Below, piece by piece: positions 5,561 to 48,300 of a stretch of DNA of 64,000 nt. Both the position numbers and the translations under genes were made by a program. The stretch lies in assembly GCA_902728285.1 (NCBI GenBank), contig CACVBU010000538.1, forward strand, positions 1 through 64,000, in the 5' to 3' direction. Under the pieces are notes generated by a model that worked only from the letters and a program-made list of their open reading frames with translations, did no database searches and had not been told where the DNA came from. Origin of the DNA: Clytia hemisphaerica (Eukaryota; Cnidaria; Hydrozoa; Leptothecata; Clytiidae). Within the stretch, counting starts at the first letter, position 1. Every line of letters begins with the position of its first letter.

Positions 5561-8500
5561 ATGAAATTAATTCAATTAATTTTGGGCTTGATGTCAACGG
5601 TTGTGATCCATGGTTATACGATAAAAGGTATGACAATCTTCTTCCATTTTAATGTTTGCTTTGCCTTTCTTTGATTTTAAAAGCTGACAAAAAAGGAAGC
5701 AATTCGCCCAGGTATATTTTAAATCGCAAACTGAATTTTTTGTTCAACAACTTTATGTGATTTTATTCATCCTCCTCCAAAATTAAAACTGATTCCACGA
5801 AAAGCGTTTAATTTGCTTTCAAACATGTTTTTCTTTCAGGTCACCAACCAACAGAGAAAACAAACAAGAAAAATGAAGAAGAAAAGGAAAATAATTCTCA
5901 CGAAAAACAATATTCAAATATCCTTATCAAGCAAAATGAGGATCTAGGTAACGAAACAAAAATTCTATTACCATCGGCCCTCTCAAATCACTTTCCGCCA
6001 TACAATGTTTTAGAGGCAATAATTGGACTTTTCAACCTGTCAACATTGTTGGAGGGGAGGGGAATGCTATTGCATTGATTAAACTATTAGCCAAATTCTG
6101 GAGCCGCTCGCTGCGCTGCCGTGCGTAGCTTGTAGGGACAAAAACTACTTTCGCTTTCGTTTTTAGGCGGCATTCGCAGATATTTGGTAAGAAAACAGTG
6201 AAACTCCCCCTTCTTTTTACCATCAAAAAATAGGAAAAAGAGATTGGATTTATGTTGGAGATTTATGTTGGAACTTTTATTGGATTTCAAGAAAAAACCT
6301 CTTCCAAACATGAAACGTTTATAATCACTCATAGTTTGGGGAATTTTCCATTATCCCGGCCACAGTCTTTGGCCTATAGCCTATGAACTTTAGTACTGTA
6401 TATGCTTTATTTGGGCTATGACTTTTCGTAGAAAAACTTTTTCTGCTCACTTTGGGCCTCAGTTGAGTATGATAGGTAGATTTTGGGTTGGGAAATAGGT
6501 AAAAAGTAAAATTATACATAAACATGTTTGAGTGTTTGAGAGTATTTTGACTTGACTTCATGTTATGTTTTTCTTATCTTTACCACACCAAAATTATCCA
6601 ACAAAATAGAATTTATAAACTATTTTCAAGCATAAAAATATTTGGCTGAAGCAAATTTTTTACAAATTTTATATATTTAATGATAAAGTAAAAACATCTC
6701 GAAATTTTATTATAATTTTTATGACAGTACTTTTTCTGTTGGGAAGTTGAAAGCTTTTCCACCAAACAGAATTGAGCACTGATAACTAATAATCCAAATA
6801 AAAAAATAATTTCAGACAGTGCTTTAGGCATCATAACTTTGCCTGAAAATGCAATGACTACAAAGTGGATTTGTACCGTCAAGGGCTCTAACTTGGGACA
6901 GTCTGACAAAACATGGGACAGCAAAACATGGAACCTTCAAAGTCATTTAATTAACATAGTCCCAAATCATAGAAAACAAACTTGTTGTCAACAGAGATTT
7001 AACAGTGAAAATACAGTCCAGAAAGTCAACCACCCCATGATATGACCACTCGTCCCAAGTTAGAGCTGTTGACGGTATGTCGGATATCCAAAACAATAAC
7101 AATCCATTATATGATATACACAGTCATGTCAATGTCGTAACATGCTTTCAATTTTTTGCGGTATTTCCAAAATTTCAGAATTTTTGGGCACTTTTTTCGG
7201 ATTCGCTTATCCTTTTCTTTTCCTGGATCCAATCAAAACCTGCACGTAAAACGTACCCCAAAATCAGTCACTTTTATAAACATTATAACTTGGTCTTTGA
7301 CGACTGGGAAGATTCAACGACAAAATTTTGAGAGTTAACGTAAAGTTTATCCTTCAGCGCAATCAGTGATGAATCCGATATGACCGATGGTGTCTCTTCA
7401 GCCATTTTTGAGATGAATAAAATGAATCATGAAATTTTTGTTATCTTAAGAGATGGGTGAAACCATGTTTGAACTATGAGCCTATATCTTGGATATCTCT
7501 CTCATATCAAAACTGTTCAATGCGATCGAAAAAATCTTTCCCAGCTGAATTCCATGATAGGGAATGTTCGTGAAGCTATTATAGTCATTGTTTGCACCAA
7601 TATAAAGTTACTTCTGCAAGTTAGTAGTCTCCATCAACAGCTTTCGAAAGCAGCAAAATCGACAAAACTACTTGAGTGAAGTTTGTAAACAAAAAAGCAA
7701 GTTTCACACATTCATTATGCTCAAAAAGTATTGTCTGTTATTCCAATGTATGATAGAAGTCTATTCCAACACATTTGATGTTGGTTCCAAGCAGTATTCT
7801 TCTTCTTTCTTCCCAAGAGTCACCAAATCTACTCAAAAAGCACTGTTTTGCAGTGCTTCCCCAGCAAAAAATGTAAACAAAATAGCTTCCGCCTCGATTT
7901 TTGTCCCGACACGCGCATCAACTGCAGCGCAGCGAGCGGCTCCAGAATTTGGCTAATGGCAAACTGTAGTGTCATAATTATAGAAGCCAATAACTGAATC
8001 TCCCAGGTAGGATTTGAAGCCGTTGAATCCTTGTTGAGGAGTTGCGCGGTCTGCGTGGATTGCACACAAATGCCGGATTAAATTTTTTTTGCTAGATTTT
8101 CAAAAATGTACCGCCACTCGAAAACAAAGAAATCGTTAGATTCAATCCGTCATAAAAAATACGGCGCACATTTTAAATGCTTCACTTATTCTTGCCTGAG
8201 AAAGGTTAAAGATTCGCTTCTAGCCTTTTCGGGCTTCTATTTCATCGCTACCAGTACCACTCTGCTGAAAATGGCCAAAAATCTAAGCAACTTGGCCTAC
8301 CAGTCGCAGCGTACAAAAATTATGCGTAGGTCAGAACTTCCACAAATCAGGACGGAATCTTTCAAACTGTAGAAGTGGAAACCCTAAAAGTGGAATCCAG
8401 CTTCAGTATGATGTTATATTGATGGTCTTTAATTTATTGAAGTCTTAATTTCTGGCCAAAAATATGGCACTGTGAAGCTATGAATAAGAAGGATTTTTCC

Positions 8501-9547
8501 TGCATCTTTGAAAACTGACCGCTACAGAAATTTCAATTTTCAATTTTCAATTTTCTTTTCATCGCAGTGGTTCAGCTGTTGGAGATTTTGAAGAAATACA
8601 AAAAATCTAAAGAAGATTCAACATTATCAACGAGGATTACAAAAACCAATATAAACAGCCAAAGTAGTGGTGAGTTTTTTCTTAGTTCACAACCAAATAA
8701 ATGTCCAAGGAAGTGTTTTTTACTTTTACTATAATGATTTTAAAGCTATACCAACCTGGAAACTTTTGGACTACCTTAAAATTCTTGAAAAATCTGATGT
8801 GCTTTTTGTATGGTGGAAAAAAGTGTTCCCAACTACTAAGCTTTAAAATAGAGGTGTATTAACATTATTAAATTTTTACTGAATTTTCGGTTCGTAATTT
8901 TTTCAGAACATAATGATGACAATATTGAAAGTAATGAAATAGTGAAAAAATGTTTTGGTTTCGGCTGGAGAAATTGTCCTGGAAAACGAGAGGCTCAAAT
9001 AAATCGAGTGAAGACAGCTTCTAGACCAGTGAAAAGTTACGAAGACCCTTCGAGGAAAAACATGCTTTGTAAATGTAAGTACTCTAAAAAAGCCAAATTC
9101 CTACCCAGACCCCTTGTTCGCTTTTTTATGATTCTGTAAGCGTCGAAGATTTAAAAAATGGCGCAAGTGGCTCTTGTGTTGACCAAATTTTCATATTTAC
9201 TTAGATCAACCGTAAAGGGATCTGGTTCGATTTCGGTAAGGGTGATTTTACCTGTGAATCTTCGAACACAGATCGATGCATCATTCGAATTCGAACTCGT
9301 TCAGTTTATGGAATAGGCTTGATAATTGTTACCCACATCATGTTTAAATTCAACGGATTTTTGTTGAATTAATTATTATAAGATAAGATAAGAAAACTCT
9401 TAGATTAATTTTAGTGCTATCCCTCAAACATTTTCATTTTCTTATCTTTTAGTGAGAAGGTTTTTACAACTGGCAAAGATATACATGGAGCTGAATTCGT
9501 TATGGAACATCAAAGCGCCCGATGAAGCAAGGAGGGACATATTTTGA
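5561..9547 (+). CDS. Candidate secreted peptide-hormone/neuropeptide precursor, 179 aa
   Basis: Five exons join in phase: 5561-5627, 5840-5947, 8568-8669, 8907-9074 and 9453-9547, all with GT donors and AG acceptors. The predicted product is 179 residues. Residues 1-18 form a hydrophobic signal peptide (MKLIQLILGLMSTVVIHG). Residues 23-105 are hydrophilic and rich in K, E and N. Residues 106-120 read KK-CFGFGWRNCP-GKR: a dibasic site, a ten-residue peptide with cysteines at 108 and 116, then an amidation glycine and a second dibasic site (8945-8989). The tail (121-179) has a third cysteine at 147 and an amphipathic stretch RRFLQLAKIYMELNSLW. By the general logic of neuropeptide precursors this would release a cyclic C-terminally amidated decapeptide acting outside the cell. 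I do not recognise the family: the C-X7-C spacing differs from vasopressin/oxytocin (C-X4-C) and CCAP (C-X5-C). ATG directly follows an AG acceptor, so a 5' UTR exon or spliced leader is expected. The exons are inferred by eye. A cysteine-containing secreted protein that is not a hormone is the main alternative. Confidence 0.62.
6090..7953. mobile_element. 1.86 kb TIR element inside an intron of the peptide gene
   Basis: The ends are GCCAAATTCTGGAGCCGCTC and its exact complement GAGCGGCTCCAGAATTTGGC; about 31 bp match, including CGCTGCGCTGC, and TA flanks both sides. The element lies between coding exons 2 and 3 of the peptide gene. Internal ORFs (for example 7476-7679 and 7672-7956) show no transposase motif, so it is probably non-autonomous. 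A smaller TIR element is nested at 6876-7075. Confidence 0.75.
6876..7075. mobile_element. 200 bp MITE nested in the 1.86 kb element
   Basis: The terminal repeats are CCGTCAAGGGCTCTAACTTG and CAAGTTAGAGCTGTTGACGG, flanked by TA at 6874-6875 and 7076-7077. A related end (ACCGTCAACTGCTCTAACTTGGGAC) appears at about 25813, so the family has other copies. Confidence 0.7.
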
Positions 9548-12653: not shown

Positions 12654-15600
12654 TCAAACGTCCGTCTCTAAGCTCAGTTCTTCAACGAAAACGAATCTAC
12701 CGGCTGACAAATAATCGACTTGACTTTGGTTTATCATGCTGACAAGCTCCGTCGATATACTCTTGCCATTCTTCTCCACATTATCGACGTAACATAAAGC
12801 GAATAGAGGTACATTCACTAAACCTACTGCATCACAAACGAGATCAATATCACGTGACCATTCAGTGACGTCATCAGAGAATTCTGGCCTCAATACGTCG
12901 TCCATGCTTGACTCTGTTGCAAGTCTCCAGAAATGTTCACTAGGGTCTATTTTTAAACACAAGTGTTTTGTCGAATCTTCTTCACAGAATTGAGGACGGT
13001 TGCCAAGCAATTTGATTGTGATGCTGACAGAGCAAGTTTCACCTTTCTTGGGTTTTTCAGTTTTTATGCTGACATCAACAGAAAATAAACACTGAAACGA
13101 GACAAAATATAGTTTAAGGTTAGAAATACTTTTTAAACTCTTGACATGCATTATGGAACATCATATGAAATTCAAGTTTATTCAGCTTGCGGATGCGAGA
13201 GACAGGATTGCGGGAGTCCCCTTTTTCTTTGAGATCGAATGCTGAGGTAGAGCACCACAGCTTTTCTAAGCTCTAAGTTAACGTGTAAGTCTTCCTGCAC
13301 TTACTTTGGTCAAAGAGATAGAAATCTTTCGTTCAAAGTGTTCTGGTACTGCTTCATGTGTCTCCTGAAGAGAAAATATACAATAGAAAATGGGATTTCT
13401 AGATAAAAGAACACTATTTTTTCTCTATAATGACAGGTTTGGTTATATTCGGTGGTAGATACTTTCATGCATAAATAAATGTTGAATGAATTGCTTGTTT
13501 ACAATCAGGACTGTGCGGATAGACCTCAAAGTATGGCGGGAATATAAGGATTTCAAATGAATTGCAATGGGCTTTTCCAGAAAAAAAAACCGTATACCCC
13601 CTGTTGAGGAGTCCTGTCCATCCCTCTGTGGCTGGAAATGCTGTAACCCCCTGGAATTCCAGGCAATTTCAGGTTTAAACCCCTCTGGAATTCTGAATTT
13701 TAGTAGGATTTAAAAAGCTACCCCCCATGGAATTCCAGTTATTTTTGACCGATTTTTGTATCTCCCTATGGAATTCCGCCACATATCAAACCTTACCCCC
13801 TTGGAACGGAAATGGACCTCCTCAACAGGGGGTATACGGTTTTTTTCTGGAAAAGCCCAATGAAGATGCAATAAAGATGTCAGAAAAACAACACTCCAAA
13901 GTTCAATCTACTAAAGCAGTTCAGCAATAAAACAAAGAAAAAAATGTTTAGAGGCCACACTCAGTTTCTTACTTTTGTTTTGAAGTCAATGTTAAAGAAA
14001 CAATCTAGTTGACCGTCGTCCGTAATACAATCTAAAAGTAGATATACATTATTATTGTTCAGAACAGCTTAACAGTGAAATACAAAAACCCAGCTTCATT
14101 TTGGTTCCACTCTAGCTGAACTAGCTAACCTTTGTCGATGAAAATAAGGGTGAAAATAATAATCAGAAAACCAGTTCTAGCCATATAACATGTTAAATTT
14201 TGACAAGTATTTGTAAATATTCCTTTAATTGCGGAAACAAAGATTTAGGTAAAAAAGCCGTACAGAAAAGTCTGGTAGAGTTGGTATTCAACTTAACAAC
14301 ATTACCCATCCAAAAACTCCTGACAAAAAAGTTCATCATACCTTTCAATTCATCAAGATTAAGTGACCATAGATATGCTGTCTCCTCGCTATTGTAAATC
14401 TTCTGTAAAACGAAAAACAAAAGTTGAAAATCAAAAATGTCCCCTTGTCTAGCATGGTCGGCGACTAATTTAGACAGACATGGCAGAAAATGAGCAACCC
14501 CTAATGCATATGAGTTGAAAATTGTCCGACTTACAAAAATCATGAAAAACATTGCACAGTTACTGGGATACAAAATTCTGAGTCAGGCGCCCTTTTTTAA
14601 ATAGAAGTTCGAGCTAAACCCTCCTTCAAGAGTATAAAGAGGTCAAGCAATTTTGAATTAAAATCTATTCCCAAATATAGATACGTACAGACACATCCTG
14701 ACCATCATTCAGAGCTGGTAAAGAGTTGCCAGCAATGACGAGGTTAGGACTTGAGAAGACCAAATGAACAGGATTGACACCACAAATGGACACTTTCAAT
14801 AACGCTCTGAAAGAAAGATTATCAGCAAATATATATTTCAGGCAATAATTTGGGAAATTAGCTTCATATTCCCGATGGGAGTGTGGTCCCTATTTCTACT
14901 GACCTCTCAAGGGTTTAGTATTCTAAAGTTTGGAAGAAAATGGAGTCTTCCTGTTTACCAATCACACTAAAATCTCCTTTGAAAATGGGAAAACGAATAA
15001 AAAACTGGGCTAATCACTCATACGGAGGAAAAATTAAAATGTCAATCCCCCTCTCCAAAGTAACCCCCCTCTCCAAAGTAACCCCCCTTTCCAAAGTAAC
15101 CCCCCACCCCCCTTTGAGAAATCTCCAACCACTTTCTTGCGTTTTTTCGGAGGCTTTCCCTCTTAGAAAACGGGAACTAAGAACTTACAAAGTGGAAGTG
15201 ACGACGACTTCATGTTTTAATTGAAAGGGTTCATAAAAGATCATGGTCAACTGTTGTAGCGTATCTGGCACTAAATGCTCCAACCATTTGCAATGAAAAT
15301 TGATCTAAAGAAAGCAAATTGTAAAACAACGAGGATCACAATCTAGCAAAGTCGTATACTAGGTTCTCAGAAGAATCGTTTTCTTGGCAAGGCACTTCAG
15401 TCAACCCTGGAGATATAGAATGTAGCTACTTTAATATACGCAGAACTTAGCAAGAAAAGTAATTGGCATCAAAAAAATGAAGTTATGGAATTATTATGAC
15501 AATTCTTCATCAAAAACGGAATATTAGATCACTACACTGGATCCCTTTAAAGAAAACCCAATATTACCTCGTGTTGATAAGTACTTTGCTGACCAAAGTC

Positions 15601-18600
15601 CTGATGCATTGGCGCCATGACGTCGAAAAAGACATTGACCCTTTCATAGGGTTTACACAGAGGTAACCTCAACAAGGCATTTTCTTTCTGATCATCCACT
15701 GCGATTGAAATGGAGTCAGTGCGTGCTTTACCTTCGCGTTCCAGTGGAAAAATCTCTATATCTGAAGGCGACAAGTCATAAAAAAGTAATCCTGTTTTGG
15801 ACAAGATCAGAAGCAAGGAGCCATCTTGAATGACGCCCGGTCCGTTCATCAGGGTCACGTGAATTCGCTGTTTACTGCCAGTCAACGAGTAATCTACTAG
15901 GTAATTTGTTGTCCAAGTCACGCGCGGCGGTTCCGTCACCATGTAGAAAGAAGCATCCTTGCGTGAGGTGAGCTTCTTGTAGAAATGTAAGTTGCCAATA
16001 TGGCAATTGACACATTGCATGTTGTACTTGCCTTCATGGTTGATCTTCAAGAAAAGGATTTTATAAAAACATATTTCAAGCTTGTCATTGGGCTAAAGAT
16101 CATACCCTGACATCATTTTAATTATGGTTGTATAAAAAAAAGACAAATATTAAGATGGTAACGATTCCAAGCTTCGATCTAAAGATAATACCCTAAGATA
16201 ATTTATCAATAGCTGAGAAAAGAAAAGGCTGGTCGAAGTTCTTCGAATTCGTATTATTAAATGTCGCCTTATTTCCATTCTAACAAGGTAGCCAAAGTTT
16301 AGGTTGTTGTGTATGGTACTTAAATGAGCAAAACTAATTCAAGGAATCATAACATACAATGGACATGACTTGAATGTTGTTTCGACCAGGTTGTAGGCGT
16401 TGGCTTCCTTTTGTTTCCAAGACAACATCCAAATTCACTGAAGTTTCTTCTGCTAATGTTCTAAAGATCATGAAAAGATTAAGATGGTGATTGACAAGAA
16501 TAACATATTCATTTACACACTACTAGGGATGGACAACCTCCAAAATATAGAGTTGGGTAACGGCAAACCAACATTTTTTGAAGTCCAGCATATGAATAGG
16601 CTACATTTTTTTCGGCTTCCCGTGAATGTGTGACCATTTGCAGAGCAGACAAGTCCAATATGTTATTTTCGGTATTTTTTACGTCTTTCCAATTTTCAAC
16701 TTTGAATCCCGTGGTTGGTTGTTAACGAGAAATGAAAAAACAATGCAAACTAGGTGACTGGATACACTTCCAGTGCGAAGCCAAGGTTTTGTGCACCTAA
16801 TAACCTAACAGTTTTCAACCCAAAAGTCCACCCATATTAAGAGTGCACTTTCTTTTTTCTACCAGGTGGACTGGAAACCACCCTCAAGGGAATTTAAAAG
16901 CACACATAAGCGATAGGAAAGTAGAATAATATGGGGGAAAAAAACGTATTAGTTATAGGGAGACTTTTTCAGGATTTCCTCTAGATACGGAAGATGACAA
17001 TTTGCTATAAATTTAGTTCACACGGAGAAAGTGTGAAAATCGAGACCTACTCTCGGGTACCTAATAGCCGGGGGAGGGAGAGGGGTTGAAATAAATATGT
17101 CCTCGGGTGAAAAATCTTCAAATAATTAATAAGCGGGGGGGAGGGGCGGCTATTAAGTACCCGACAGTAAGAATGTACTTACCTATTCGGTGTGCTTGTT
17201 TCATCAATATTTAGTTGACTCAAATCAAGTGATAAATCTTGTTCTTTCGGTGTCGCTTCACTCTTGACAGTATCTACTTGTTCATTCGAAGAAGGTTGGG
17301 GATTCTCTAAATCTGTATTGGTTTCGTTAGCTATTTCTAAGAGTGATGAGCGCTTAGGGATGTCTCCGTTTGGCTGTTTGCTGTCGTGTTCGGACTTTTC
17401 TTCATTTTGTACTCGACCTTTATTTGTCGTTTCACTTTGCGCTCGAACCTTATTGGTTGTCTCAGATTGTGGTGGCTCCTTATTGGATGGCTCAGAATGC
17501 GCTCGTTCCTTATTGGCTGTTTCAGTCTTTTCAGAATTTTGACTGGTCGGTTCTGCTTCAGATTCGCTTTTGAATAAAGCTCTTTTAGCACTGTCTGCAT
17601 CATTTTCAACTGTAGCGTTTAAAGTAGAGCCATCGATTGAGATGGTAATCGAATCTGTTTTTATTTCGTTGGTTTCTACCACGTTCTTATTCCTTGACCA
17701 TGTTCTACGATGGCTCTTAATGCGTTTCAATAAGTTACTGGGCGTTAAAGCTTCCTTGGCAGTTTCTTCTTTTTGAGGCTGTTTCTCCTGCGGTGATATA
17801 GAATTCATACCAAAGTCTTTATTCTCGAACAAACTTTTACGTGCCGATAAGACATTCTCTGAAAAGCTATCCGGGTTACTTAAATCAAAATGTTTCGCAT
17901 TGATCGTAACTCGTTGACACTCAACCGGCATCGTTAATTCATTATCAAATATGATATTCACTTGGACTGTATCCCCGATGTGCCCTTTATGTTTAACCAG
18001 GCCTACCTTAGCGCTTATGATTTTCAACACTGGCTCGCTATTTATCGTAGGTAGATTTAAGTCTTTGTCATTCGATAACCGCATCACCTCTTTCGAATAA
18101 AAATCTCTCGTTTCGAACGGTAAACAATGGGCACATGATAGTAAAGTTACAGAGCTCAAATATCGTTCGTGAAGTTTGTGTTTGAGTTGACAATCCGCTA
18201 GCGGAATCAAAACATCAGTGTACAGTGTTTCCCATCGTTGACTTTTATAAATACTCCAAGAAGTCTCTAAAAGTGGTTCTGCTAGTAAATATTGTCCGTG
18301 TTGAAGATAATATTTTGCTAGATCAATACCAACAAACATTTTTGAGTGTTTTCGACCAATATCCTCGTACCGCGTCATACAGGCGTTGGTGATATCAATA
18401 TAAAGTTTCTCGAAATTTCCTCGACTTTCAAGAGCAGCTTCAACTACTTTAGGTGAATGGTTTTTATTCATGCTGAATTTTCCTAACCCGTTGTAAAGCT
18501 GCTGAACTAGTTCTTTTTCTTCATCGCTCTGCTCTCGATTGTAATACACGCCAGTAACTTGACCCAGTAAAAGAATTTTCTGTCGCATCAAGTCATAGGT

Positions 18601-21600
18601 TTGTGCCACCGTAGCACGAAATGAATGATCTAGATTTTCATCTTTCTCAAGAACCGGTAAAACTTGTAAACAGGTCAACACGATCCAACAAGCCACAATA
18701 TGGTCTGGGACTTTCATCTGAAAAAATTACAAGGTTGAGATATCGAAAAACTTAAAATCTTTTTGGGTTAGTAAGGATGTATACGAAAGAAAATGCATAT
18801 ATTGTTTTTCACATCAAATATAGACACATGATATCATGCTTTCTCTACAGCAATAGTTAGAAATTGACAACTTGAGATATCTCAATACCACAAGAGATAG
18901 AAAAATTCCCAATTTCTGACCGAAAAAATATATAAATCAGTGAGCACACCACCACAAATTCCAGGGGACAATTAAAATTTCACACAATTTTTAAAACAAC
19001 TTGTCAAATATTGAATGGACTAAAAATCCTTACGTCAAGTAGCCGAAATTCATGGATGACCGCAAAAAGAAATTCCAATAATCTTGAAGGGATTTCCCAT
19101 TTCCTTTTCATCTTGATCAATAATTTGCATTGCCTCAAGAAAATATAATTCCTCAAATCAAGAAGAGTGGCTTTGTTTGATTTGATGAGTGTATTATATT
19201 GGTCTGCTACTTTGCCGCTCAAAATGACACCATCCCATATAGTTGGAGTCGTGCTCAACTCTGTCAGCCATTTTGGGAATTCTGAATGAGAGAAAAATCA
19301 TTTAATTTTAAGAATACTGTTGTAAAAATCAAACACAAAAGGAAAGGTTAAGATTTCATTTCAAAAGGATTTTCCATGTCACATTAACCTGCATTCTGTG
19401 GGGTACCTGGATTCTGTGGGCCAGGGACTGTACGTATACAAAAACATTTCCAAGAGTGATAAAAATTTGTCTTGCAAATCACTTCAAAATTGCAATCTAT
19501 AAGTTTGGTTTTGAGTTGTGAAATGGTGACCTTACGAAAGTTTCAATGGAGAAATAAAGTCATTTTGTTTCTAAATTTTGTGACATATCTTTAAAATAAA
19601 AGGTCTTATAACAAAGAAATAGCCAAGCGAGAGTGGCAGAATATGTGTCCTCTACAAACTAGTGTCCAAGAGACACAGTGTATTTCATTGTATTTTATTG
19701 GGCTTTTCCAGAAAAAATCCGTATACCCCCTGTTGTGGAAGTCCATTCCTCTGTGGCTGGAAATGCTGTAACCCCCTGGAATTCCAGGCAATTTCAAGTT
19801 TAAACCCCACTGAATTTTAGTAGGATTTACAAAGCTAACCCTATACACTAAATAATATTCTAAGACACTATTCTTCAAAAAACATAGCCCTTTGTTATCT
19901 TTACTTTTGTCTTATAAAAGCAGGGCTCGAAATAACGGTCGGACATCGGACCCAAATAGCTTCATGTCAGACCCAAAAATCATAATTTTCAAGCTAAAGC
20001 AACCCTGATCGGACATTTTGTCCGACCCACTTGAAATCGTTATTTCGTGCCTTGTAAAATGTAGTTTTTTTACCTTTTCCACTGCTGTTGATGATGAATT
20101 GTGAAAGGAGAGCATCTACTTCATCGTATTGTATCAGGGCATCGTCATTCAGTGTGATACTTTGATAAATAAACGCCAATTCCTCCTTTAAAAAATGATA
20201 ATAAAGCAGTTTTTAAAGGTTTTGTTTTCAAATAAGAGTGATATTGTTTGCTTGCTCATCAAATTTTATTTACAAGCTTTTTCACATCGAATTGACACAG
20301 ATGTGGAGCAAAATTGGTCAGAAAGTGGAAAAAACCTTTTTGTTTATTCAGCACAAAATCGAACACAATATAACAATAGGAGACACCGACCTGACATAAA
20401 AACCAGAACACTTATTTGAAAACTATAAAATTTTTAAAGTTAATTCAGCTTGTCGAGTTCAGAATGTTCACTGTTTATTAAAAGAATCCTTTTCGTCTGT
20501 GTATAAAGAATATCTCGCAATAAGCTACATCCCCAACCCTTCGTGGGATAACAGTTTGGAAATTTTATTCATAAATCAATCTTAGACACAACACAACACA
20601 ACTTTGAATTACAAAGTTGATTTGATATTGCCTTTAAATAGTAGACAACATATATTATCATATAAAAATGCATGTCAGTATAAGAATCAGAAAGCAAACT
20701 TACATGAACTAAGAAATATTCAATAAAAGGCCATTTGGGGTCTGCATACTTTTCCCTCATTGAACGAATTTTTTCTTCAAATTTATCCAAATATCTACCA
20801 AAAGATTCCAGTAGTGAATTTCTGAGTGCAGACAACAATGTTTGCCAAGATTCGTTAGATTTTGTAAACAAAGTTTCTTTGTCTGGTTCCCAGAGCTGAA
20901 CACATCTAAAAGGGATTACGAATTCAATGAAAGATGTAATATATGAATTTCTTCAATTTGAATTGGAGATAAACAGCATATGGAAAACCCCCTAAATATC
21001 ACATAATGTTGAAACTTTCTATGGAAGGTGTTATTTAATCTATAATGATGGCAATATGAATGACGAACAAAAAAAAGAACATCAAAAATATTTAGGGAGT
21101 GGTATTTATAATCATTGTATTAAATTCCCTAAGTTAATATTCATTGACCTATCAGACTTATCAATTTACCTGTCTTGTCCAAAATCAGACTTCAGCTTAT
21201 CAAAAACAGAAGACCTTGGCAATTGAATCTTGGATTTGCCTGATTTTGCGTTCTCTTGGTACATGACATGAACAATGAGCCAGTCGACATTCTTGTTGGT
21301 TGCAAGATGGTTTTTCCAGTTATTGACTTCTGATTTGATAGACGATTTGTATTTGTCATTATCCTGTGCAGAGACAAAATCGTAGCCATAAAATTAATAA
21401 GAAATACCTTTTGTATAATTATAAAAACCACGTTTATAGGAATTTTTTTTACGATTTATTCAAATTTTTCATTTGTCATTTTTCATTTAATAGCTGACGA
21501 TTTTGTAGTAGGGGGAAATTTGTAAAATCGCTCGATTTTTTTAGTCAAAGCACTTGTTATACATTTTTGGAAAGCTAAGGGGTAGGGGAATCAAAATAAC

Positions 21601-23580: not shown

Positions 23581-25672
23581 TATCTAAATAATAGTAAAAA
23601 TTCAAAACTTTATTTTTGTAGAACTCTGAGTTTCATGCGTACAATCATCAGCTACAGTACATACAAAATGATCTAATGTGTTGAAAAAATTACATCTTGA
23701 GAAAAAATCGTAAAGTCGTAAAAGGTCGTAAAAATTGGTGAAATAAATTGAAGTAATAAATAGAACAAAAGGAAATTCTCAAGGGTCCGTCAGTCTTTTG
23801 ACTTGTAATTAGCCAGCATGAATTTATTCATATGTCGGCATTTAGAAACAATTTCTGAGCGTTTATTGAGAAGTTCGGGCTTATTTTCGTAGCGAAGAAT
23901 TTCTAACTTTTCTTGCAAGCACAAACGGCAAACTTTCGAAGTGTTAGAATATGATTTTACCCGTTTCATGATAGACCATTTAAGATTTGGCAAGACATTT
24001 TTATCTTTTAAACTCCAGACGTACGTCGAAAGGGTAGTTTTGTTCTTGTATTTGACATTGGTGATGGATAGTTTATGCCCGTTATATCTTTGTTTGAACT
24101 CCTTCTCAGTGAGACCAATGTAAACTTTTTTCTCGTGATCTGGGGCAGTTACTTCGCATTTGTAAATTACAGATGTGGTTTGGCACTTGTTGTCTAACGG
24201 ACATGACTTCTTATCTCGGCAATTACAAAGCTCAGTTGTAGATTCGCTTTTCGATAATATCTTCTTGTTGTGTGCTGCAATAATCGTGCGGACGTTTTCA
24301 GTACACGAATAACTAATTTTGACATTGTTTTTGTTGAACACTTTATAGAGGTTGTTTGCTTTGGTGAAGTGCTTCGAAATCAATTTTAGGAATAATTTAC
24401 CAATGTTTGTTGAAACATTTTTACTAAAGGGTGGATTGAACCAAATTATTTTGCGCTTCCTGTTGCAGTGGGTGGGTTCAGTGTTGTTGCTATTGTTATT
24501 ATATAACAATTGGGTATTCTTGTAACCACTAGTTTTTAGTGCCTGTTCGTATTGTGGTTTCGCTTGGTTGAAAATGGTTTCATTCGATGAGTTTTTGGTC
24601 AACCTTTTGTTGATCGATGATGGGAGTTGGTTAATTATATTGCTGGGATGATTGAAAGAAGTGTGAATGTATTGAAGCGTATCATTCGGTTTCTTGTACG
24701 GTCGATATGTTCCAGTCGATAAGTCTAGTGTTAAATCTAGGAAGTCAACAGTTTTCAGGTTAATGTTTATCTCTATGTCGAATCCGATTGTTTTGAAAAT
24801 GTCGATAATCTTTTGGCGTGTGGTTTCGGCGTCTTTATCTTTCAAATTATGGAAAATCATCAGACCATCGTCACGATATAAGCCAATATCGTGTTTTTTT
24901 GTGATTTGTAAGAGGTTGTGAAAAATATAAATACCTACAAGCTCGCAAATTTCTGCTCCGTCGAAGCTTCCCATTGTGACGTCGAAGCAGTCGTGGGATT
25001 TGTTTTTCTTCCATGTTTTGTCATTCGAATAAAGAAGTGATTTGCGGCAGTGGTTGATTGTTCTAAGTTCTTTTTCGGTTATAGTGGTGTGTTCCATAGC
25101 AAAATTTAATGCATTATCTAATATACGTTTCGTTATATTTGGATAAAATTCTTTTATATCCATCTGAATGAATGAATGTTCGTTTTTATTATTTATCGAG
25201 GAAAACCACTCAATTACTTGGTCAGAGTTTTTCCATTGGTTTACGTTTAATTTGTTACGGAGGTCTGTATTGATACGGTCTAAGATGGATTTACTGATTG
25301 CACCAAGTTCGCTCTTGCAGGGATTGATGAGGCGACAAGGGTGTTTTTGATGAAAGTTCGGTTTGTGATCTTTCAGCGTGATAAATGCGGGTGAAGGAGC
25401 AAGGTATTCTGCACGATCGTGGACATTGTACGAGGTTGCTATACAATTGGCTTCACTGTTTATAGCGTTTTCGAGGTTGGTCGGTGCATGTTCATAATTT
25501 TTTGTGACGTTCTCGCGAAGTAACTTGTTGTGTTTCTCAGCTGACATAGTGTAAATGTTTGAAGTTTTATCCGCGAAGACATAAACTTTTTCCGTGGAAA
25601 AATATTTTTTTTGAAATTCCTGGATTTCCAATACAAAATCATTTTCTCCCAAATGACTATCTAAATAATAGT
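23581..25672 (-). mobile_element. Penelope-like retroelement, intact ORF
   Basis: The element contains one full-length ORF (23790-25733) and about 190 bp of 3' sequence with a hammerhead motif. The 15 bp TATCTAAATAATAGT occurs at 23581-23595 and again at 25658-25672. This fits a target duplication, or a terminal sequence shared by element copies. Beyond the right copy, 25673-25735 is an inverted copy of the ORF start region. Such partial inverted duplications at the 5' end are known for Penelope-like elements. Confidence 0.8.
23617..23656 (-). ncRNA. Hammerhead ribozyme motif in the 3' region of the Penelope-like element
   Basis: Read on the minus strand the order is TGTAG (helix I), CTGATGA (core), TTG-TACG-CAT (helix II with a four-base loop), GAAA (core), CTCAGAGT (helix III, ACU/AGU pairing around CAG, counting the last core A), U as the cleavage-site base, then CTACA (helix I, five pairs with TGTAG). 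All conserved core bases are present. Helix II is weak, with a U-U at the first pair, and the cleavage triplet is GUU rather than GUC. Hammerheads are established in terminal regions of Penelope-like elements, which supports the call. Activity is not shown. Confidence 0.65.
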
Positions 25673-25733
25673 CATTTGGGAGAAAATGATTTTGTATTGG
25701 AAATCCAGGAATTTCAAAAAAATATTTTTCCAC
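23790..25733 (-). CDS. Penelope-like element polyprotein: reverse transcriptase plus GIY-YIG endonuclease, 647 aa
   Basis: The RT domain covers roughly residues 110-330: LKDHKPNF and PCRLINPCKSELG, then FIQMDIKEFYPNIT, MGSFDGAEICELVG and the catalytic YRDDGL. A cysteine cluster follows (CNCRDKKSCPLDNKC, about residues 525-540). The C-terminal GIY-YIG-type nuclease reads VYIGLTEKEFKQRYNGHK. This order (RT, cysteine motif, GIY-YIG) is that of Penelope-like elements, whose enzyme copies RNA at a nuclease-cut target. The frame is intact, suggesting recent activity. The annotated start lies inside the inverted duplication at the 5' end, so the true start could be one of the later methionines, for example near residue 63. 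Confidence 0.9.
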   Translation of the reverse strand: MEKYFFEIPGFPIQNHFLPNDYYLDSHLGENDFVLEIQEFQKKYFSTEKVYVFADKTSNIYTMSAEKHNKLLRENVTKNYEHAPTNLENAINSEANCIATSYNVHDRAEYLAPSPAFITLKDHKPNFHQKHPCRLINPCKSELGAISKSILDRINTDLRNKLNVNQWKNSDQVIEWFSSINNKNEHSFIQMDIKEFYPNITKRILDNALNFAMEHTTITEKELRTINHCRKSLLYSNDKTWKKNKSHDCFDVTMGSFDGAEICELVGIYIFHNLLQITKKHDIGLYRDDGLMIFHNLKDKDAETTRQKIIDIFKTIGFDIEININLKTVDFLDLTLDLSTGTYRPYKKPNDTLQYIHTSFNHPSNIINQLPSSINKRLTKNSSNETIFNQAKPQYEQALKTSGYKNTQLLYNNNSNNTEPTHCNRKRKIIWFNPPFSKNVSTNIGKLFLKLISKHFTKANNLYKVFNKNNVKISYSCTENVRTIIAAHNKKILSKSESTTELCNCRDKKSCPLDNKCQTTSVIYKCEVTAPDHEKKVYIGLTEKEFKQRYNGHKLSITNVKYKNKTTLSTYVWSLKDKNVLPNLKWSIMKRVKSYSNTSKVCRLCLQEKLEILRYENKPELLNKRSEIVSKCRHMNKFMLANYKSKD

Positions 25734-25735
25734 AG
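25563..25735. repeat. Inverted duplication at the 5' end of the Penelope-like element
   Basis: The arm TTCCTGGATTTCCAATACAA and following bases, to CCCAAATGACTAT, are mirrored after the loop CTAAATA by ATAGTCATTTGGGAGAAAAT and onward to CCAGGAATTTC. The arms are about 80 bp and nearly perfect. As a result ORFs on both strands start with the same peptide phrase (EIPGFPIQNH). Confidence 0.85.
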
Positions 25736-25967
25736 AATTCTGCTGTCGTCCAACCCCCGCCCCCGTAACGGCCTGGAAGTGCCCAATAGGTAATACTTGA
25801 GCTAATGTATACCGTCAACTGCTCTAACTTGGGACGACAATTCGGCCACCATTTCACCAAACTTCCAAAGTCATTTGATTTGAGTTAATGAACGGCATAT
25901 TAAAAAATACACAATTTCTCTTTCGCGCAGAGTAGGCTTTTAAATTGAAATATGAAAAAAATCCGTA

Positions 25968-33971: not shown

Positions 33972-34907
33972 ACCATAAACCAATCAATAACGTATATTAA
34001 CTTTTGACCAATCAATAACGAATAACTTTTGACCAATCAATAACGAATAACTTTTGACCAATCAATAACGAATAACTTTTGATCAATCGTTAACAAGAAC
34101 ATTCGACCAATCAATAACGAGAACATTCGACCAATCGATAACAAGAACATCCGACCAATCAATAAAGAGAACATTCGACCAATCGATAACGAGAACATTC
34201 GACCAATCAATAACAAGAACATTCGACCAATCAATAACGAGAACATTCGACCAATCGATAACAAGAACATTCGACCAATCAATAACGAGAACATTCGACC
34301 AATCGATAACAAGAACATTCGACCAATTGATAACAAGAACATTCGACCAATCAATAACGAGAACATTCGACCAATCGATAACAAGCACATTCGACCAATC
34401 GATAACAAGAACATTCGACCAATCAATAACGAGAACATTCGACCAATCGATAACAAGAACATTCGACCAATCAATAACGAGAACATTCGACCAATCGATA
34501 ACGAGAACATTCGACCAATCGATAACAAGAACATTCGACCAATCAATAACGAGAACATTCGACCAATCGATAACAAGAACATTCGACCAATCAATAACGA
34601 GAACATTCGACCAATCGATAACAAGAACATTCGACCAATTGATAACAAGAACATCCGACCAATCAATAACGAGAACATTCGACCAATCGATAACAAGAAC
34701 ATTCGACCAATCGATAACAAGAACATTCGACCAATCAATAACGAGAACATTCGACCAATCGATAACAAGAACATTCGACCAATCAATAACGAGAACATTA
34801 GACCAATCGATAACAAGAACATTCGACCAATCAATAACGAGAACATTCGACCAATCGATAACAAGAACATTCGACCAATCGATAACAAGAACATTCGACC
34901 AATCCAT
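33972..34907. repeat. Minisatellite, 27 bp units then about 34 copies of a 24 bp unit
   Basis: About four copies of a 27 bp unit (ACTTTTGACCAATCAATAACGAATA type) lead into a long array of a 24 bp unit built on CATTCGACCAATCGATAACAAGAA. Two versions (CAATAACGAG and CGATAACAAG) often alternate, giving a 48 bp higher-order period. Since 24 is a multiple of three, several frames stay open: IGRMFLLS, VIDWSNVL and RTFDQSIT. The ORFs at 34083-34970 and 34327-34938 are therefore artefacts. Confidence 0.9.
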
Positions 34908-37900
34908 GATGAATAACATACATCGATACATCGTTTGAAATGAATCGATTTGAGGAAATTGTTGAGCCAAGTGTCACGAAGCTCAGATGGAATTGGATCA
35001 TCCCAGTCTAGCTTTCTCAAAACAAGATCGTGTAAGTCGCTTTTGAATGTAGCTGTGGTTGGTGTGGTCTTGCCAAGAAGATCATAGATTACTCCAACCT
35101 TTGATGCACAATGGCGTTTTGTCAGTACATTTGGAATGACGTTTGATTTGGCTTCAGGTTTCTTTCCTCTCTGACATTTTGCAAAATTGAGGTCACCGAC
35201 GTTGAGCGAGAGTAAGTCATCTTTGGTGTTTTCGGGTTTGTTCAGCTTTCCGATTTGCTGTTCATAGACTTTTAACGCGATCGGTTTGTTGGGTGCTAGC
35301 CATTTGGCGGGGTTGTATAGCACGGGTAAGCGGACGGTAGCGATATGGGATTCAATATCGATTGAAACGGAAGATTCGACAAAGGTTTGTTCGGCCTCTT
35401 CCTTTAGACTGGTTGATTCAATGGAATCATGATTTTTGCAATCTTTGCATTCACGGCAAGATACACAACGATAGCTGATTTGGGAACCTGCATTCTCAGC
35501 ATTGTCTAACGATTTGAGTGGATTTGCTTTGAATGAGGAATGAACAAGATCAGACTCTGAGAGAGGAGAAACCATCATGATATTGGACATCTCACTGACG
35601 AATGATGGCGAAGTAAAGTGCGATTGGAAGCGAATCTTGGAAAACGATTCGTGTGGACCACCAATGATGCCAGTGGTTCCATCGGCACTCCGAAAAATGG
35701 ATTTAAAAATGGTTAAACCCGTTGGTATTTGGAAGATCGGTTTCGGATGGTACTTTAGGTATTTCATACCAATCATAAAATCAACATTTCCACCGATGTG
35801 ACTTGGCAATTTTGGAAATGTTTTGGCTAGAGGTCCGGCAGCAAAGCAAAGATCCTTCTCGGCTTCTTTTAGTGGAAATTGCGGAAATTCCCCGGTGATA
35901 TCTGTAAGACAGGTTCCTCTTAGAACTGCGGTTTCCCCGGAAGCAAGCGGAAGTTGAACGCGGTAAATTCCGTGCTCTGCAGAAGTGCTTTTCTTTCCCA
36001 CTCCGGTAATCGAAACAGGGATGTTAGAGATCAAAGTAACGTGTGGACCAAGACGCTCGACTGCACTTTTTCTGACGATAAAGTCACTACACCCAGAATC
36101 AAAGAATATATTGAATACTTCACCATTGACTTTGATTGACTGGAACATGTAGATTCCTCGGTCTGGAATGTCTCCACCTTGATCCTCAAAATCTGTTTGA
36201 ACATTGTTGACTTCGATTTCTCCACTTGAGATTTCTGAGTAGAAGGATAATTTGATGTCTCTGGAAAATGAAGGTAAGCTTGAATTTCTGGTAATGAATC
36301 TGGACTTGTACTTGTCCAATAGATCCTGATTTTCATCAAAATGCTTATGCTCTTCACATATAAGGATGTGTTTCTTTTTGGGGTACTTGGAATGTGATCC
36401 ATGGGGGCAAACAAAATCTTGCTGGCATTTCCCTTCTTCATGTTTCCCAACGTTCCACTTAGCCCCTGGCAAAAGACATTGAAAGCAAAGACCCTTTTTG
36501 CGCAACATTTGGAGTCTTTCGGAAGGTGTCTTCTCGACAAACTTCCGGCACGAAAAGTATTGAATGACTTTGACTCCTCCCTGGCCTGTCGTAGCAACAT
36601 GGTCATCCTCCCCAGCAGCACTCCCACAAAGAATGCAGATCTCATTATCAAATTTGTCTGAATGATAGCCTGATAAGCTTGGGACTTTTCGTTTTTGGGG
36701 TGCAAGTGGTGGATCCTCCCTTCCTGTGAGTCTGAGCTTTTGTTGTTGGATCTTCAACTCCTTCTCTAAGAAGTCAATGACGTTTTCCCACAACACCTTA
36801 CCACTTTGGTTGATCCCAATAGACTGTTCAAGCCACTTGGTAACCCGGTAATCACCCATCAATTTGTAGACTGTATCCAAGGCATCCCCGTAGTAAAGAT
36901 ACTTTTCGATTCTATGCCTGGACGCAAGGATCATCAAATCCCTCATAAGATTGATCAGTTGGCTTAACCCTGCAAGTACTTTTCCTGGTTCCCTGGATCC
37001 CTTGAAAGATTGGATATCCCTCAAAGAAGAAATTTTCTTTGTAAGTAGAAACTTCGTATCCCCATAAACTTCCTTGAGGCGAACCCAGATTTCGTCAATG
37101 TTGTCTAAGTGTTTGACAAGGGACAATGCAGGCTCTGACAAATGATTGTTGATCAGCAAATCAGGCAAGAGACGTCTAGTGGTGGTTCGGAGATGCAATT
37201 TTTCGAATTCGGATTGAAAAGTATAAATGTCAAGATCTGAATTGTAGCCAGAGAAATGGGACAATTTGATATTGAGCTTCGTCTCTTTGATCAAATCCCT
37301 TTTATTCAATTCTCTTCGACCAATTTCACTTGTCAGATCTTCATTGAATTTGAACTTCAGAGTAACAACTAAGGTATATCTCTTACCAAGCTGCTGTTTT
37401 GCCTTAACAAGCGTCTGACCTGATGGATTAAACTTCAAAGATTCTTGGTACTTCTGGGTTGCATGTTTGAAGCTCTTCAGGTAATTCTCCTGATTCTCCT
37501 TCCACCTTAGCAGTTGTTCATCAGTTGCAAGTTGCACATTCTTCTCCCAAGACATTTGCAACTCTTTCAAACAATGATCGGTTGATTCCACTTGAAACAG
37601 TATGGCCTCCTCCTCGAGGTCCTTGGTGGTCTTCAGCTGGGTTGCTTCTAGGTGCATTGCTTCAACTTTGATGATCTTTATCTCATCCTTGGCTAATCTG
37701 ATTGCAGCTGCAATTTCGTTGATCAAAGTCTCGTAATCCGTAGCATACTTCTCGTCGTATGTTGCACCGAGATAATGTCGTAATTTGTAGTGTTTGGAAC
37801 GAAACGTTGTTCGATGTTTCTCAAGCTGAGACAACACATCACTAACGGGTGTGACGTAGTAAGAAATCTCTTGGATGTAGTCACATATTTCATCTTTCAT

Positions 37901-45309: not shown

Positions 45310-48300
45310 ATGGCAACTCCAGGGCTATCAACCCCTAATAGAACCACAAGAAAGAGGAGACCAATGAATGTATCCCCTGCATTGAATCTATCTACAAGTC
45401 TTCTAGAGGTAAATGATGATATTGAAGAACGAAGATTACGTCGTAAATCAAAACTCTTGACAGGCAATATTCTGAGTCCTGGAGGAGTACAAGCTTCACC
45501 ATCAAGACCTGGACAAAATGATAAGGACAAGTAAGTGAAAAAAATGACTATTTGAGTGAGCTAGCTTTAATGATCGTCCATATAATGCTCTCTTATTTGG
45601 GTGCTTTAATTATTCATCATGCTCAGGGTTGATTTTTGTTCAAATGACTTTTATTTAATAAAACAATGATGGACTTTCATAGATAATAATTTTGAAACAT
45701 TAATTTTTTGTAGGAGAAAGTCAATCAGTCTCAGTCATGCTGGTGTGACAAATGCACAACTCAAAGAACATTATGCAAACTGTATCAAATTGTCTTCTGA
45801 AAATGTATGTTTCACCTAATACTTTTGATAAGTTTTGATGTACCAAGCTTGAAGGTTTAGTCATTTTTGTCTGGTCAATTTTTCATAGTCACAAAATAAG
45901 AAGTCATTTAGATCCTGCAAAAAAGTAAGTTTACCAAATTTTTCATTTATAACTTAACTTGAGTTATCTTTTTTTCAATCCTTCGTATACTTTTTATGGT
46001 TTATAGAAAATTAATGTAAAGAATGCATTTGGTTTACATTTGATTGACTATATGAAAGATTTGCTCAAAGAATCCAATAAAGATGAAAATGCCACTAATT
46101 TTCAAGTTGCCAGTTGTACACTAGATGCTGGTGTCAAGATTTACGCATATCGTGTAGATTCTGTTCATAGTGAAGCATATAAGGTTCTGGGAAGCCTTGG
46201 AAGAGCAGTGAACAATCCAGATGGTAAGAAAGGTTCCTGCTATAGAGGTTTCTAAGGGTTTGCTATATGTTGTTCTGCCATTAAGGAAATATGCAAAAAT
46301 TTGAAGAGACAATTCATTTTATAAATTATTTCTTTATTCTACCAAAATGGTAGAAATCATATACTTAGCCAAACCTAAAAAGTAAATGTGTCTAATCTGA
46401 AAATTCCTTATTGATTGCTCTTCCCAATTCTATTTTTTATTTTACGATCTATGACAAATCTTATAACCATGAATCACTTTTAGCACAGCTGATTATAGTA
46501 TATTATCTAGGGCTTTAATCCAATGATTATGTCCACTACTATTTCCACTTATTATCTCTCCGCTTAGTTCTTGGCCAAAGGATTTAGGTAATTTCCTATA
46601 AAGAACAATATAATAAAGAACAATGTAAAAAATTAAAAATTTAAACACAATAAACAACTTGCTTTCTTAGAACCAGAAGATGGGGAGCAGCCTGACTCAC
46701 AAGAAGGTGGCTCATCACAACCCGTGGCTAAAAAAACTAAAAAGGTATAAAATTTGTTTCATTTTTTGGTGGTATATGGTTATATGTGAATAATTGTATA
46801 TTATTATATATTATATTATGTATATTTCTTCACCCTTTTGATTTTTTCACTTCCTTCTTCCCAGAGAGCAGCTGGTAAGACTATCGAGACAAACATGAAA
46901 AACATAAACTGTGAGCAACTTGATATCGATTATGAGGTAATCATTTCTTACCATTTATGTTTTGATACTCCATGACGTCATCTGTTTGATGATTTATGCT
47001 TGGTCTTACTACAGTTTCTATTGCTCTTTCTATTTGTTTGAGTTGCAGGAGGCTTTGAGACGCAACTATAGACGAAAGAGTCAAAGAGCATCTCGTCAGC
47101 ACCTTGGACTGACTACCCAATTCCCCTAACTAAAAAACATGGGAAAATTCTTAGCCATCTTGTTTTGAAAATAGCATGGTTGATCGGAGAAGAGCCTATT
47201 TACTATTACAAAAATATGGATCACATATCCCAACACTGTCCCTGGTTTAGTAGGGAGATTGGATGATTAAAAATATTAAAAGAATTGGACATCCTTAAGA
47301 TGACCCATAGTGTGCAGAGGGGTCCAGCCCCCACCATTTTTCAGGGGGGGCTAAGAAAAATAGCCCCCGGCTAAATTCTTGAAACATAGCCCTCACCTTC
47401 ACAAAGCAAAATATCAAAGAAATTTTGCATGGAAATTCTCAATAAATTTATTACGTGGCAGGCAAAAAAAATTTTTCAAGAGGCACAAAACTTTCCCTAC
47501 AGCATAGATTTTTAACATAATTTAAAATATCTTCAACCTATCACCTCTGCCCCCAGTTCTATTACACAACACTCAGCCCCCCTCCCCCCCTAGTAAGCTA
47601 GCCCCCAGTATTTTTTGAAAAATACAGCCCCCAATCAAGCAAAAATGGTTTAGCCCCCTCCCCCTCCTAAGCTCAGGGGGGTGCATTCTATGTGACCTAT
47701 GATTGTTTCTTTTTCCAGGTTGACCCATTCTTTACCAAGATTTCAGCAGCATGTGATGAAGCTGGCACCACCAGTTTGTTGTCATTCCATTTGAGATCAC
47801 ATTCTGATTTGAATGATTTGTTGCTGGACTCATCAACCACTGTCGATTCCATACCAAACGCAACAGTTGGAGAAACTACCAATGATGATGATATGGTTGA
47901 TCTCAGCTCTTTGAGAGGTTCAATTTTTTATATTTTACTGTCTTTTCGATGGATAGAATAATGCTTTAAAAACAACGTGCTTTAAAAGGAAGAAAATATG
48001 ATTACAAGCATTACATATTATTTTGTGTTGATTAATGTAAGTCTTTAAAAAGGAGAAATCGAAATTAATGATGAAAAATGAAGAAGAAAAAATAATAATG
48101 AATTTAAAAAAAATTTAAAATTAGATTAAATTTTTTTTCTTCTTTCGAACAAGTAAAAGCAAACTCAAGTGATACTCTATCTTAACTTTAGCCAATGGTA
48201 CACTTACCTTCAATAGAGCAGTGATTCAGAGAAAACAACATAGGGCACATGAGTCCTCTAAAATGTACAAAATTTTCCCATCCGTTTGTATCAGTGATCT

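What the first reader, a model, noticed from the sequence alone, without database searches (positions are those of the whole stretch)
5561..9547. Possible undescribed amidated cyclic neuropeptide precursor
Five exons with consensus borders and agreeing phases give a 179-residue protein. It has a signal peptide, then KK, a ten-residue C-X7-C peptide with an aromatic/glycine core (CFGFGWRNCP), then GKR. Signal peptide, dibasic cleavage, a cysteine pair and an amidation signal in one small gene is the classic layout of a peptide hormone. The sequence matches none of the vasopressin, CCAP, CCHamide, GGNG or allatostatin-C patterns I know.
Basis: partly seen in the sequence, partly recalled or inferred. 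Interest (0 to 1): 0.78.

Follow-up and report, generated by a model that had tools for sequence, protein, structure and literature searches.

The report
Hydrozoan secreted peptide gene, fast-changing peptide
This is most likely a real gene of a hydroid-type jellyfish relative whose secreted product could release one small amidated peptide, but a second, matching copy of the same chromosome segment lacks one of the two cysteines, so the proposed ring-shaped hormone is not a fixed feature.

Summary
In detail: five GT-AG exons, all introns phase 1, give 179 residues with a signal-like N terminus and KK-CFGFGWRNCP-GKR. The window's own genome (417 Mb, 951 contigs) has a second complete copy on contig C397, in a largely collinear segment that also holds TRAPPC10; most likely the other haplotype. 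There all five exons keep length, frame and GT-AG borders, with 0 indels in 540 coding bases against 31 events in 4,120 non-coding bases; codon use also fits (1 of 3,000 nulls as high). So the gene is very probably real. But that copy reads KK-FFGTGWRNCP-GKR: the first cysteine is gone, while KK, GWRNCP and GKR are kept through three silent changes. The "cyclic" claim fails as a fixed feature; the "processed, amidated peptide" claim survives, unproven. The mitochondrial contig points to a hydrozoan. No Pfam match above cut-off, no PDB match, no confirmed relative in viral or prokaryote contigs, and no paper holding strings of the peptide longer than five residues. Closest published layout: the Hydra Hym301 family. 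A neural role is untested.

The parts
5561..5627 (+). Exon 1: start codon, signal-like N terminus MKLIQLILGLMSTVVIHGYTIKG
   Evidence: hydropathy high over about residues 3-16; identical in the C397 copy; directly preceded by an acceptor in the top 0.13% of AG sites
5840..5947 (+). Exon 2: charged spacer, 108 nt, phase 1-1
   Evidence: 0 of 108 differences in C397; its donor is weak (top 17% of GT sites)
6086..7957 (.). Terminal-inverted-repeat element in intron 2 (arms 6086-6122 and 7921-7957, 97% complementary)
   Evidence: absent from the C397 copy, which shows the empty site
8568..8669 (+). Exon 3: VVQLLEILKKYKK..., possibly helical spacer (by eye), 102 nt, phase 1-1
   Evidence: 5 of 102 differences in C397
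8907..9074 (+). Exon 4: peptide-bearing exon, 168 nt, phase 1-1
   Evidence: 17 of 168 differences in C397, 11 codons non-synonymous and 4 synonymous
8945..8950 (+). KK, predicted N-terminal cleavage site
   Evidence: kept in C397
8951..8980 (+). Predicted peptide CFGFGWRNCP (codons 108-117); FFGTGWRNCP in C397
8981..8989 (+). GKR, predicted amidation glycine and cleavage site; the only G[KR] in the precursor
   Evidence: kept in C397 through a synonymous change at codon 120
9068..9070 (+). Third cysteine (Cys147), outside the peptide, kept in C397
9453..9547 (+). Exon 5: LRRFLQLAKIYMELNSLWNIKAPDEARRDIF and stop
   Evidence: 2 of 95 differences in C397

Best explanation
A real gene at one locus of a hydrozoan cnidarian encodes a secreted precursor. 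Shown: five exons, open frame, and a second copy with all exons and GT-AG borders kept. Inferred: the N terminus is cut off as a signal peptide; in the secretory pathway a proprotein convertase cuts after KK (106-107) and KR (119-120); a carboxypeptidase and an amidating enzyme turn ...CPGKR into ...CP-amide; one decapeptide per precursor is released, CFGFGWRNCP-amide from the window copy and FFGTGWRNCP-amide from the other. The shared part, GWRNCP-amide, would be the receptor-contacting part. A Cys108-Cys116 disulfide can form only in the window copy; the other product would be linear, or dimeric through its single cysteine. The peptide would act as a lineage-restricted secreted signal, neural or epithelial, that changes quickly, as the Hydra Hym301 proteins do. 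My estimates: real spliced coding gene 0.92; secreted 0.85; KK/GKR-processed and amidated 0.6; ring needed for function 0.3; made in neurons 0.35.
For: Gene. Signal-like N terminus: (hydropathy only). Single bracketed peptide with one GKR. KK and GKR kept in the second copy. Codons 112-121 (GWRNCPGKRE) carry 3 synonymous and 0 non-synonymous differences, codons 122-140 carry 1 and 9 (Fisher P 0.014; the intervals were chosen after seeing the data). Two exact DNA matches to a degenerate pattern for GWRNCPGK(R) in 417 Mb, these two copies, none for the reversed control. Whole-precursor search of the genome finds only these two loci (10 exon matches at E<=0.001, 19 candidates scored). Hydrozoan origin: COX1 with TGA=Trp on C900; only tRNA-Met and tRNA-Trp in the 14,551-base mitochondrial contig by the standard ARAGORN run.
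Against: No transcript or peptide evidence. The ring is not shared by the second copy. Exon 4 as a whole shows dN 0.102 against dS 0.136, close to the divergence of intron 3 (12.6%), so most of exon 4 looks little constrained. Whole-CDS dN/dS (0.038/0.081) is not significantly below 1 (Fisher P 0.11) and is higher than in four exon stretches of TRAPPC10 (0.0155/0.068). The gene has one peptide copy and no pGlu/XP N terminus, unlike the hallmarks given for cnidarian preprohormones (PMC8638164 section 20). Four of nine splice sites score in the mediocre range.
Confidence: 0.5

Rival explanations
1. One reading: a conserved, disulfide-closed, amidated neuropeptide hormone; the C397 copy is a degenerate or mis-sequenced allele.
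For: Layout in the window copy; Cys116, KK and GKR kept.
Against: C397 keeps every exon, the frame and the GT-AG borders and carries three silent changes in the peptide core, so it does not look degenerate. The F111T difference is a two-base change, hard to explain as one sequencing error. The peptide exon is the most variable exon.
Confidence: 0.2
2. A secreted protein whose function lies in the conserved N-terminal (exons 1-2) or C-terminal (exon 5) parts; KK and GKR are chance dibasics and exon 4 is a drifting linker.
For: 0 of 175 differences in exons 1-2, 2 of 95 in exon 5, 17 of 168 in exon 4; exon 4 dN close to neutral; eight dibasic pairs in the precursor.
Against: Introns 1 and 2 are also little diverged (1.2-2.2%), so the low difference in exons 1-2 is partly regional; codons 112-121 hold only silent changes.
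Confidence: 0.2
3. An epithelial or glandular effector peptide (defence, venom or mating) rather than a nervous-system signal, under diversifying selection in exon 4.
For: Codons 122-140: 9 non-synonymous and 1 synonymous differences.
Against: The whole 8670-9380 block is divergent, introns too, so no selection is needed; 4.8% of 1,243 overlapping 168-base windows are as divergent as exon 4. The predicted peptide has one basic residue, which does not suggest a membrane-active peptide (by eye).
Confidence: 0.15
4. Not a gene: a chance chain of exons around a chance motif.
For: A motif of this type is expected about 200 times by chance in 417 Mb (scaled); four of nine splice sites are mediocre.
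Against: No indel and no stop in 540 coding bases between the copies against 7.5 indels per kb around; host codon score 1 of 3,000.
Confidence: 0.05

Closest known systems
Hym301 family of Hydra (PMC2586386; passages, and section 9)
   Same: Hydrozoan; small secreted protein with signal peptide, a relatively conserved region after it and a highly diverged C-terminal part that in mHym301A carries the peptide; a GKK amidation signal named for three members (mHym301A, oHym301A, oHym301B) of the seven genes of three species; reported as having no homologues outside Hydra. Recalled, not seen in a call: the Hydra peptide has a disulfide ring and ends in proline-amide.
   Different: Hym301 proteins have 87-106 residues and the four H. 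magnipapillata genes have four exons; here 179 residues and five exons, with the peptide in the second-last exon. No sequence comparison was possible (the sequences are in a figure).
Cyclic cnidarian peptides: GPPCRWGCamide of Clytia (PMC8638164, passage) and CXXXMCWFRamide of Scyphozoa and Cubozoa (PMC6909153, passages)
   Same: Cnidarian, cysteine pair, amidated.
   Different: Rings of C-X3-C and C-X4-C; the Clytia and Nemopilema precursors described carry several similar peptides; sequences unrelated by eye; here the cysteine pair is in one copy only.
Echinoderm single-copy cyclic candidates Arnp24 (PMC4772807 section 43) and Ajnp25 (PMC6586643, passage)
   Same: One short peptide with two cysteines and a C-terminal amidation glycine; not assigned to a known family.
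   Different: Other phylum; Arnp24 precursor of 83 residues; no peptide sequence shown in the text I saw.
Vasopressin/oxytocin family
   Same: Cysteine ring followed by proline and an amidation site; 'NCP' shared by eye (compare holotocin CFITNCPLG-NH2 in PMC6586643, passage).
   Different: C-X7-C (or no ring) instead of C-X4-C, no neurophysin, peptide not next to the signal peptide.

Membership tests
Cnidarian neuropeptide preprohormone (hallmarks of PMC8638164 section 20) | Signal sequence | tested here: inconclusive
   Hydrophobic N terminus; no trained predictor was on hand
Cnidarian neuropeptide preprohormone (hallmarks of PMC8638164 section 20) | Canonical C-terminal processing site (GKR, GKK, GR) | tested here: met
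   One GKR, kept in both copies
Cnidarian neuropeptide preprohormone (hallmarks of PMC8638164 section 20) | Several similar peptide copies | tested here: not met
   One G[KR] site per precursor
Cnidarian neuropeptide preprohormone (hallmarks of PMC8638164 section 20) | N-terminal protection (pGlu, XP, XPP) | tested here: not met
   Predicted peptide starts with CF or FF
Cyclic (disulfide) amidated peptide family | Cysteine pair conserved among copies | tested here: not met
   Cys108 is Phe in C397
Vasopressin/oxytocin | C-X4-C ring (recalled; also in the holotocin example) | tested here: not met
   C-X7-C in the window copy, no pair in C397
Vasopressin/oxytocin | Neurophysin domain after the peptide | tested here: not met
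   Precursor has three Cys in all and no Pfam match above cut-off; a six-frame cysteine scan of the window listed four cysteine-rich stretches and one CSP-type match, none neurophysin-like by eye. The genome-wide neurophysin search did not complete
Hym301 | Sequence homology to Hydra Hym301 proteins | not testable with these tools
Hym301 | Four exons, 87-106 residues | tested here: not met
   Five exons, 179 residues against PMC2586386 section 9
CCAP, CCHamide, allatostatin-C, GGNG, elevenin, MCH, somatostatin | Family cysteine spacing and C-terminal motif (recalled) | tested here: not met
   C-X7-C with NCP end, compared by eye only; no Pfam match above cut-off; no PDB chain up to E 10

The most novel reading that the evidence does not exclude
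A peptide signal that segregates in one species as two products of one locus: a disulfide-closed monomer from one haplotype and a linear or cysteine-linked dimer from the other, kept as an old allelic pair.
Probability: 0.1. Interest if true: 0.65.

Novelty: new member of a known kind. Interest (0 to 1): 0.4.

Why it matters
If expressed, it adds a single-copy, amidated peptide precursor to hydrozoans. The published survey's script requires three or more processing sites and so could not find it; only its TBLASTN route could, and that needs a known relative as query (PMC8638164 section 20). It is also a worked case in which a predicted hormone ring is present in one copy of a locus and absent from the other, a warning for neuropeptide calls made from one haplotype.

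Tried and rejected
Vasopressin/oxytocin kinship: the NCP and F/R positions look alike by eye, but ring size and neurophysin fail. Melanin-concentrating-hormone kinship: considered from the features described in PMC4772807 (passages); ring size and C-terminal position in the precursor differ. Relatives outside the genome: viral contigs, 24 stretches matched a pattern, none confirmed; prokaryote genomes, 122 stretches, none confirmed. Both are poor places to look for an animal peptide; no animal collection was on hand. Tandem copies in the window: tblastn gave the five exons and matches with E 0.25 or worse (output cut at 4,000 characters). PDB search with a TRAPPC10 exon, to place the organism: nothing. 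Rfam and tRNA scans of the window: nothing. First codon-use run had two of four TRAPPC10 segments out of frame; it was redone and only one search is used. One search fetched ten stretches of other contigs of this genome in search of the mitochondrion, without success. Paper searches were used as listings to choose papers. In one search the five-residue string GFGWR occurs in two papers; the passages show synthetic kisspeptin analogues, taken as coincidence. A recent large segmental duplication instead of a second haplotype is not excluded, because read depth and unlinked single-copy genes were not tested. A search for more diverged relatives with exons 4-5 of the C397 copy (12 tries), the whole-genome neurophysin search (1 try) and the pattern (1 try) did not complete.
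Full report
Observation. The precursor has a hydrophobic N terminus, eight dibasic pairs, one G[KR] site (GKR at residues 118-120) and three cysteines, 108, 116 and 147. The bracketed decapeptide motif is the only one of its kind in the window; 150 Markov windows give 0.033 on average. That would still be about 200 chance motifs in the whole genome (my arithmetic), so the motif is a lead and not a proof.

Is it a gene? Codon use resembles that of the neighbouring host genes: score 7.5 against a null of -25.1 with sd 10.4, 1 of 3,000 stop-free random joins as high; against retroelement codon use 88 of 3,000, against both pooled 22 of 3,000. Splice sites are mixed: of nine sites, four rank in the top 0.6% of all AG or GT sites, one at 2%, and four between 6.7% and 17%; the matrix comes from only 20 sites. 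The ATG at 5561 directly follows an excellent acceptor; only 2 of 2,137 ATGs on both strands, this one included, have so good an acceptor directly before them. A 5' untranslated exon or a spliced leader would explain this. Hydrozoans are known for spliced-leader trans-splicing (recalled). The neighbouring NCAPH-like gene also has an acceptor-like site 8 bases before its ATG, of middling score (top 6%). A third possibility, that the ATG is internal to a longer protein, is not excluded but would waste a good signal-like N terminus.

The second copy. When the genome search answered, it gave the size of the window's genome (417,433,876 bases, 951 contigs) and a second complete set of five exons on contig C397 at 153615-156317. 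The contigs are largely collinear: window 1-23.2 kb with C397 147.8-169.0 kb, 23.2-29.8 kb with 168.9-172.9 kb, 30.4-31.0 kb with 213.0-214.8 kb, 43.4-45.3 kb with 216.2-220.0 kb, and the NCAPH-like start at about 220056. Between them lie unshared stretches, and two window stretches (41.0-41.6 and 42.2-43.2 kb) match C397 214.8-215.9 kb in the reverse direction, as repeats would. A 515-residue TRAPPC10 exon has two matches in the genome (18 candidates scored), on C378 and C397, at 100% and 98% identity. The simplest reading is two haplotypes of one locus in a very heterozygous animal (dS 0.068 over four exon stretches of TRAPPC10); a recent large duplication is not excluded.

What the second copy shows. 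Exon lengths are the same (67, 108, 102, 168, 95), with no stop and no indel, and the borders are GT-AG, while 4,120 aligned non-coding bases around hold 31 indel events, so 4.1 would be expected in 540 bases (P(0) 0.017). The 1.87-kb inverted-repeat element of intron 2 is missing there and the empty site can be read. Differences per exon are 0/67, 0/108, 5/102, 17/168 and 2/95. In the peptide, Cys108 is Phe and Phe111 is Thr; Arg114, Cys116 and Arg120 differ by silent changes only. The predicted products are CFGFGWRNCP-amide and FFGTGWRNCP-amide. The ring of the finding is therefore not shared.

Selection. NG86 counts: whole CDS dS 0.081, dN 0.038; exon 4 dS 0.136, dN 0.102; codons 112-121 three silent and no replacement differences; codons 122-140 one and nine. 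The contrast of the last two has Fisher P 0.014, but the intervals were chosen after seeing the data; the whole-CDS contrast is not significant (P 0.11). Exon 4 sits in a block (8670-9380) where introns are divergent too (intron 3 12.6%, aligned part of intron 4 5.7%; mean over 17.1 kb aligned 3.2%); 4.8% of 1,243 overlapping 168-base windows are as divergent as exon 4. So exon 4 as a whole looks nearly neutral, with a hint of constraint on GWRNCPGKR. This is compatible with a processed peptide whose C-terminal half matters, and also with a drifting linker; only a transcript, peptide or wider comparison can decide.

Organism. COX1 lies on C900 and needs TGA as tryptophan. The 14,551-base contig carries only tRNA-Met and tRNA-Trp by the standard ARAGORN run; the mitochondrial mode lists six, these two and four others. 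Its large frames, named by my own reading, run cox2, atp6, cox3, nad2, nad5, nad6, nad3, nad4L, nad1, nad4, cob, cox1 on one strand. From memory this is the hydrozoan (Hydroidolina) arrangement. Phylum Cnidaria is well supported; class Hydrozoa is likely; the species is unknown.

Comparison. No Pfam match above a cut-off (best is DUF411 at E 0.26); no PDB chain up to E 10. The peptide strings (4 strings; 6; 4) are in no paper of the library; the five-residue GFGWR is in two papers, as part of synthetic kisspeptin analogues (passages). The library lacks most subscription papers and preprints, and sequences in figures and supplements were not searched. The hydrozoan survey PMC8638164 (passages, outline with abstract, section 20) requires three or more processing sites in its script and uses TBLASTN with known queries for precursors with one or two, so this gene could have been missed. 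The one place with the word cyclic in its main text describes GPPCRWGCamide. In PMC9545775, PMC12440616 and PMC13004499 I searched only for words such as cyclic, cysteine, disulfide and Hym-301; the passages show no comparable peptide. Hym301 of Hydra (PMC2586386, passages and section 9) is the closest layout: signal peptide, a conserved region, a highly diverged C-terminal part carrying the active peptide in mHym301A, an amidation signal in only some members, no homologues found outside the genus in 2008. Homology could not be tested.

Verdict. Gene real (0.92). A processed, amidated, single-copy secreted peptide is the best reading (0.5-0.6). A conserved cyclic neuropeptide, as proposed, is now less likely (0.2). 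Interest 0.4.

Noticed in passing
about 12654-21400 or beyond, minus strand: TRAPPC10 gene (Pfam PF23036 at 1e-16 on one exon), tail to tail with the peptide gene; two genome matches to its long exon.
   Followed up: partly
45310-47916, plus strand: Exons that I read as condensin subunit NCAPH (by recalled sequence, no search).
   Followed up: no
6086-7957: Inverted-repeat element with an empty site on the other contig, 2-base overlap at the junction.
   Followed up: yes
34069-34938: Tandem repeat of a short unit, open in several frames, at the end of a long frame that looks like a BEL-type retroelement (element type recalled).
   Followed up: no
23790-25814, minus strand: Long frame that looks like a Penelope-type retroelement with a GIY-YIG-like end (recalled; Pfam gave no match above cut-off).
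   Followed up: no
window 29.8-43.4 kb against C397 172.9-216.2 kb: The two contigs differ here by about 30 kb net of unshared sequence, with two reverse-direction matches.
   Followed up: partly
window 20257-20533: Another block of about 13% divergence between the two contigs, near TRAPPC10 exons.
   Followed up: no
L032, L033 (C900): Mitochondrial contig of 14,551 bases ending inside cox1; comparing its two ends gave only matches of 19 bases or less.
   Followed up: partly
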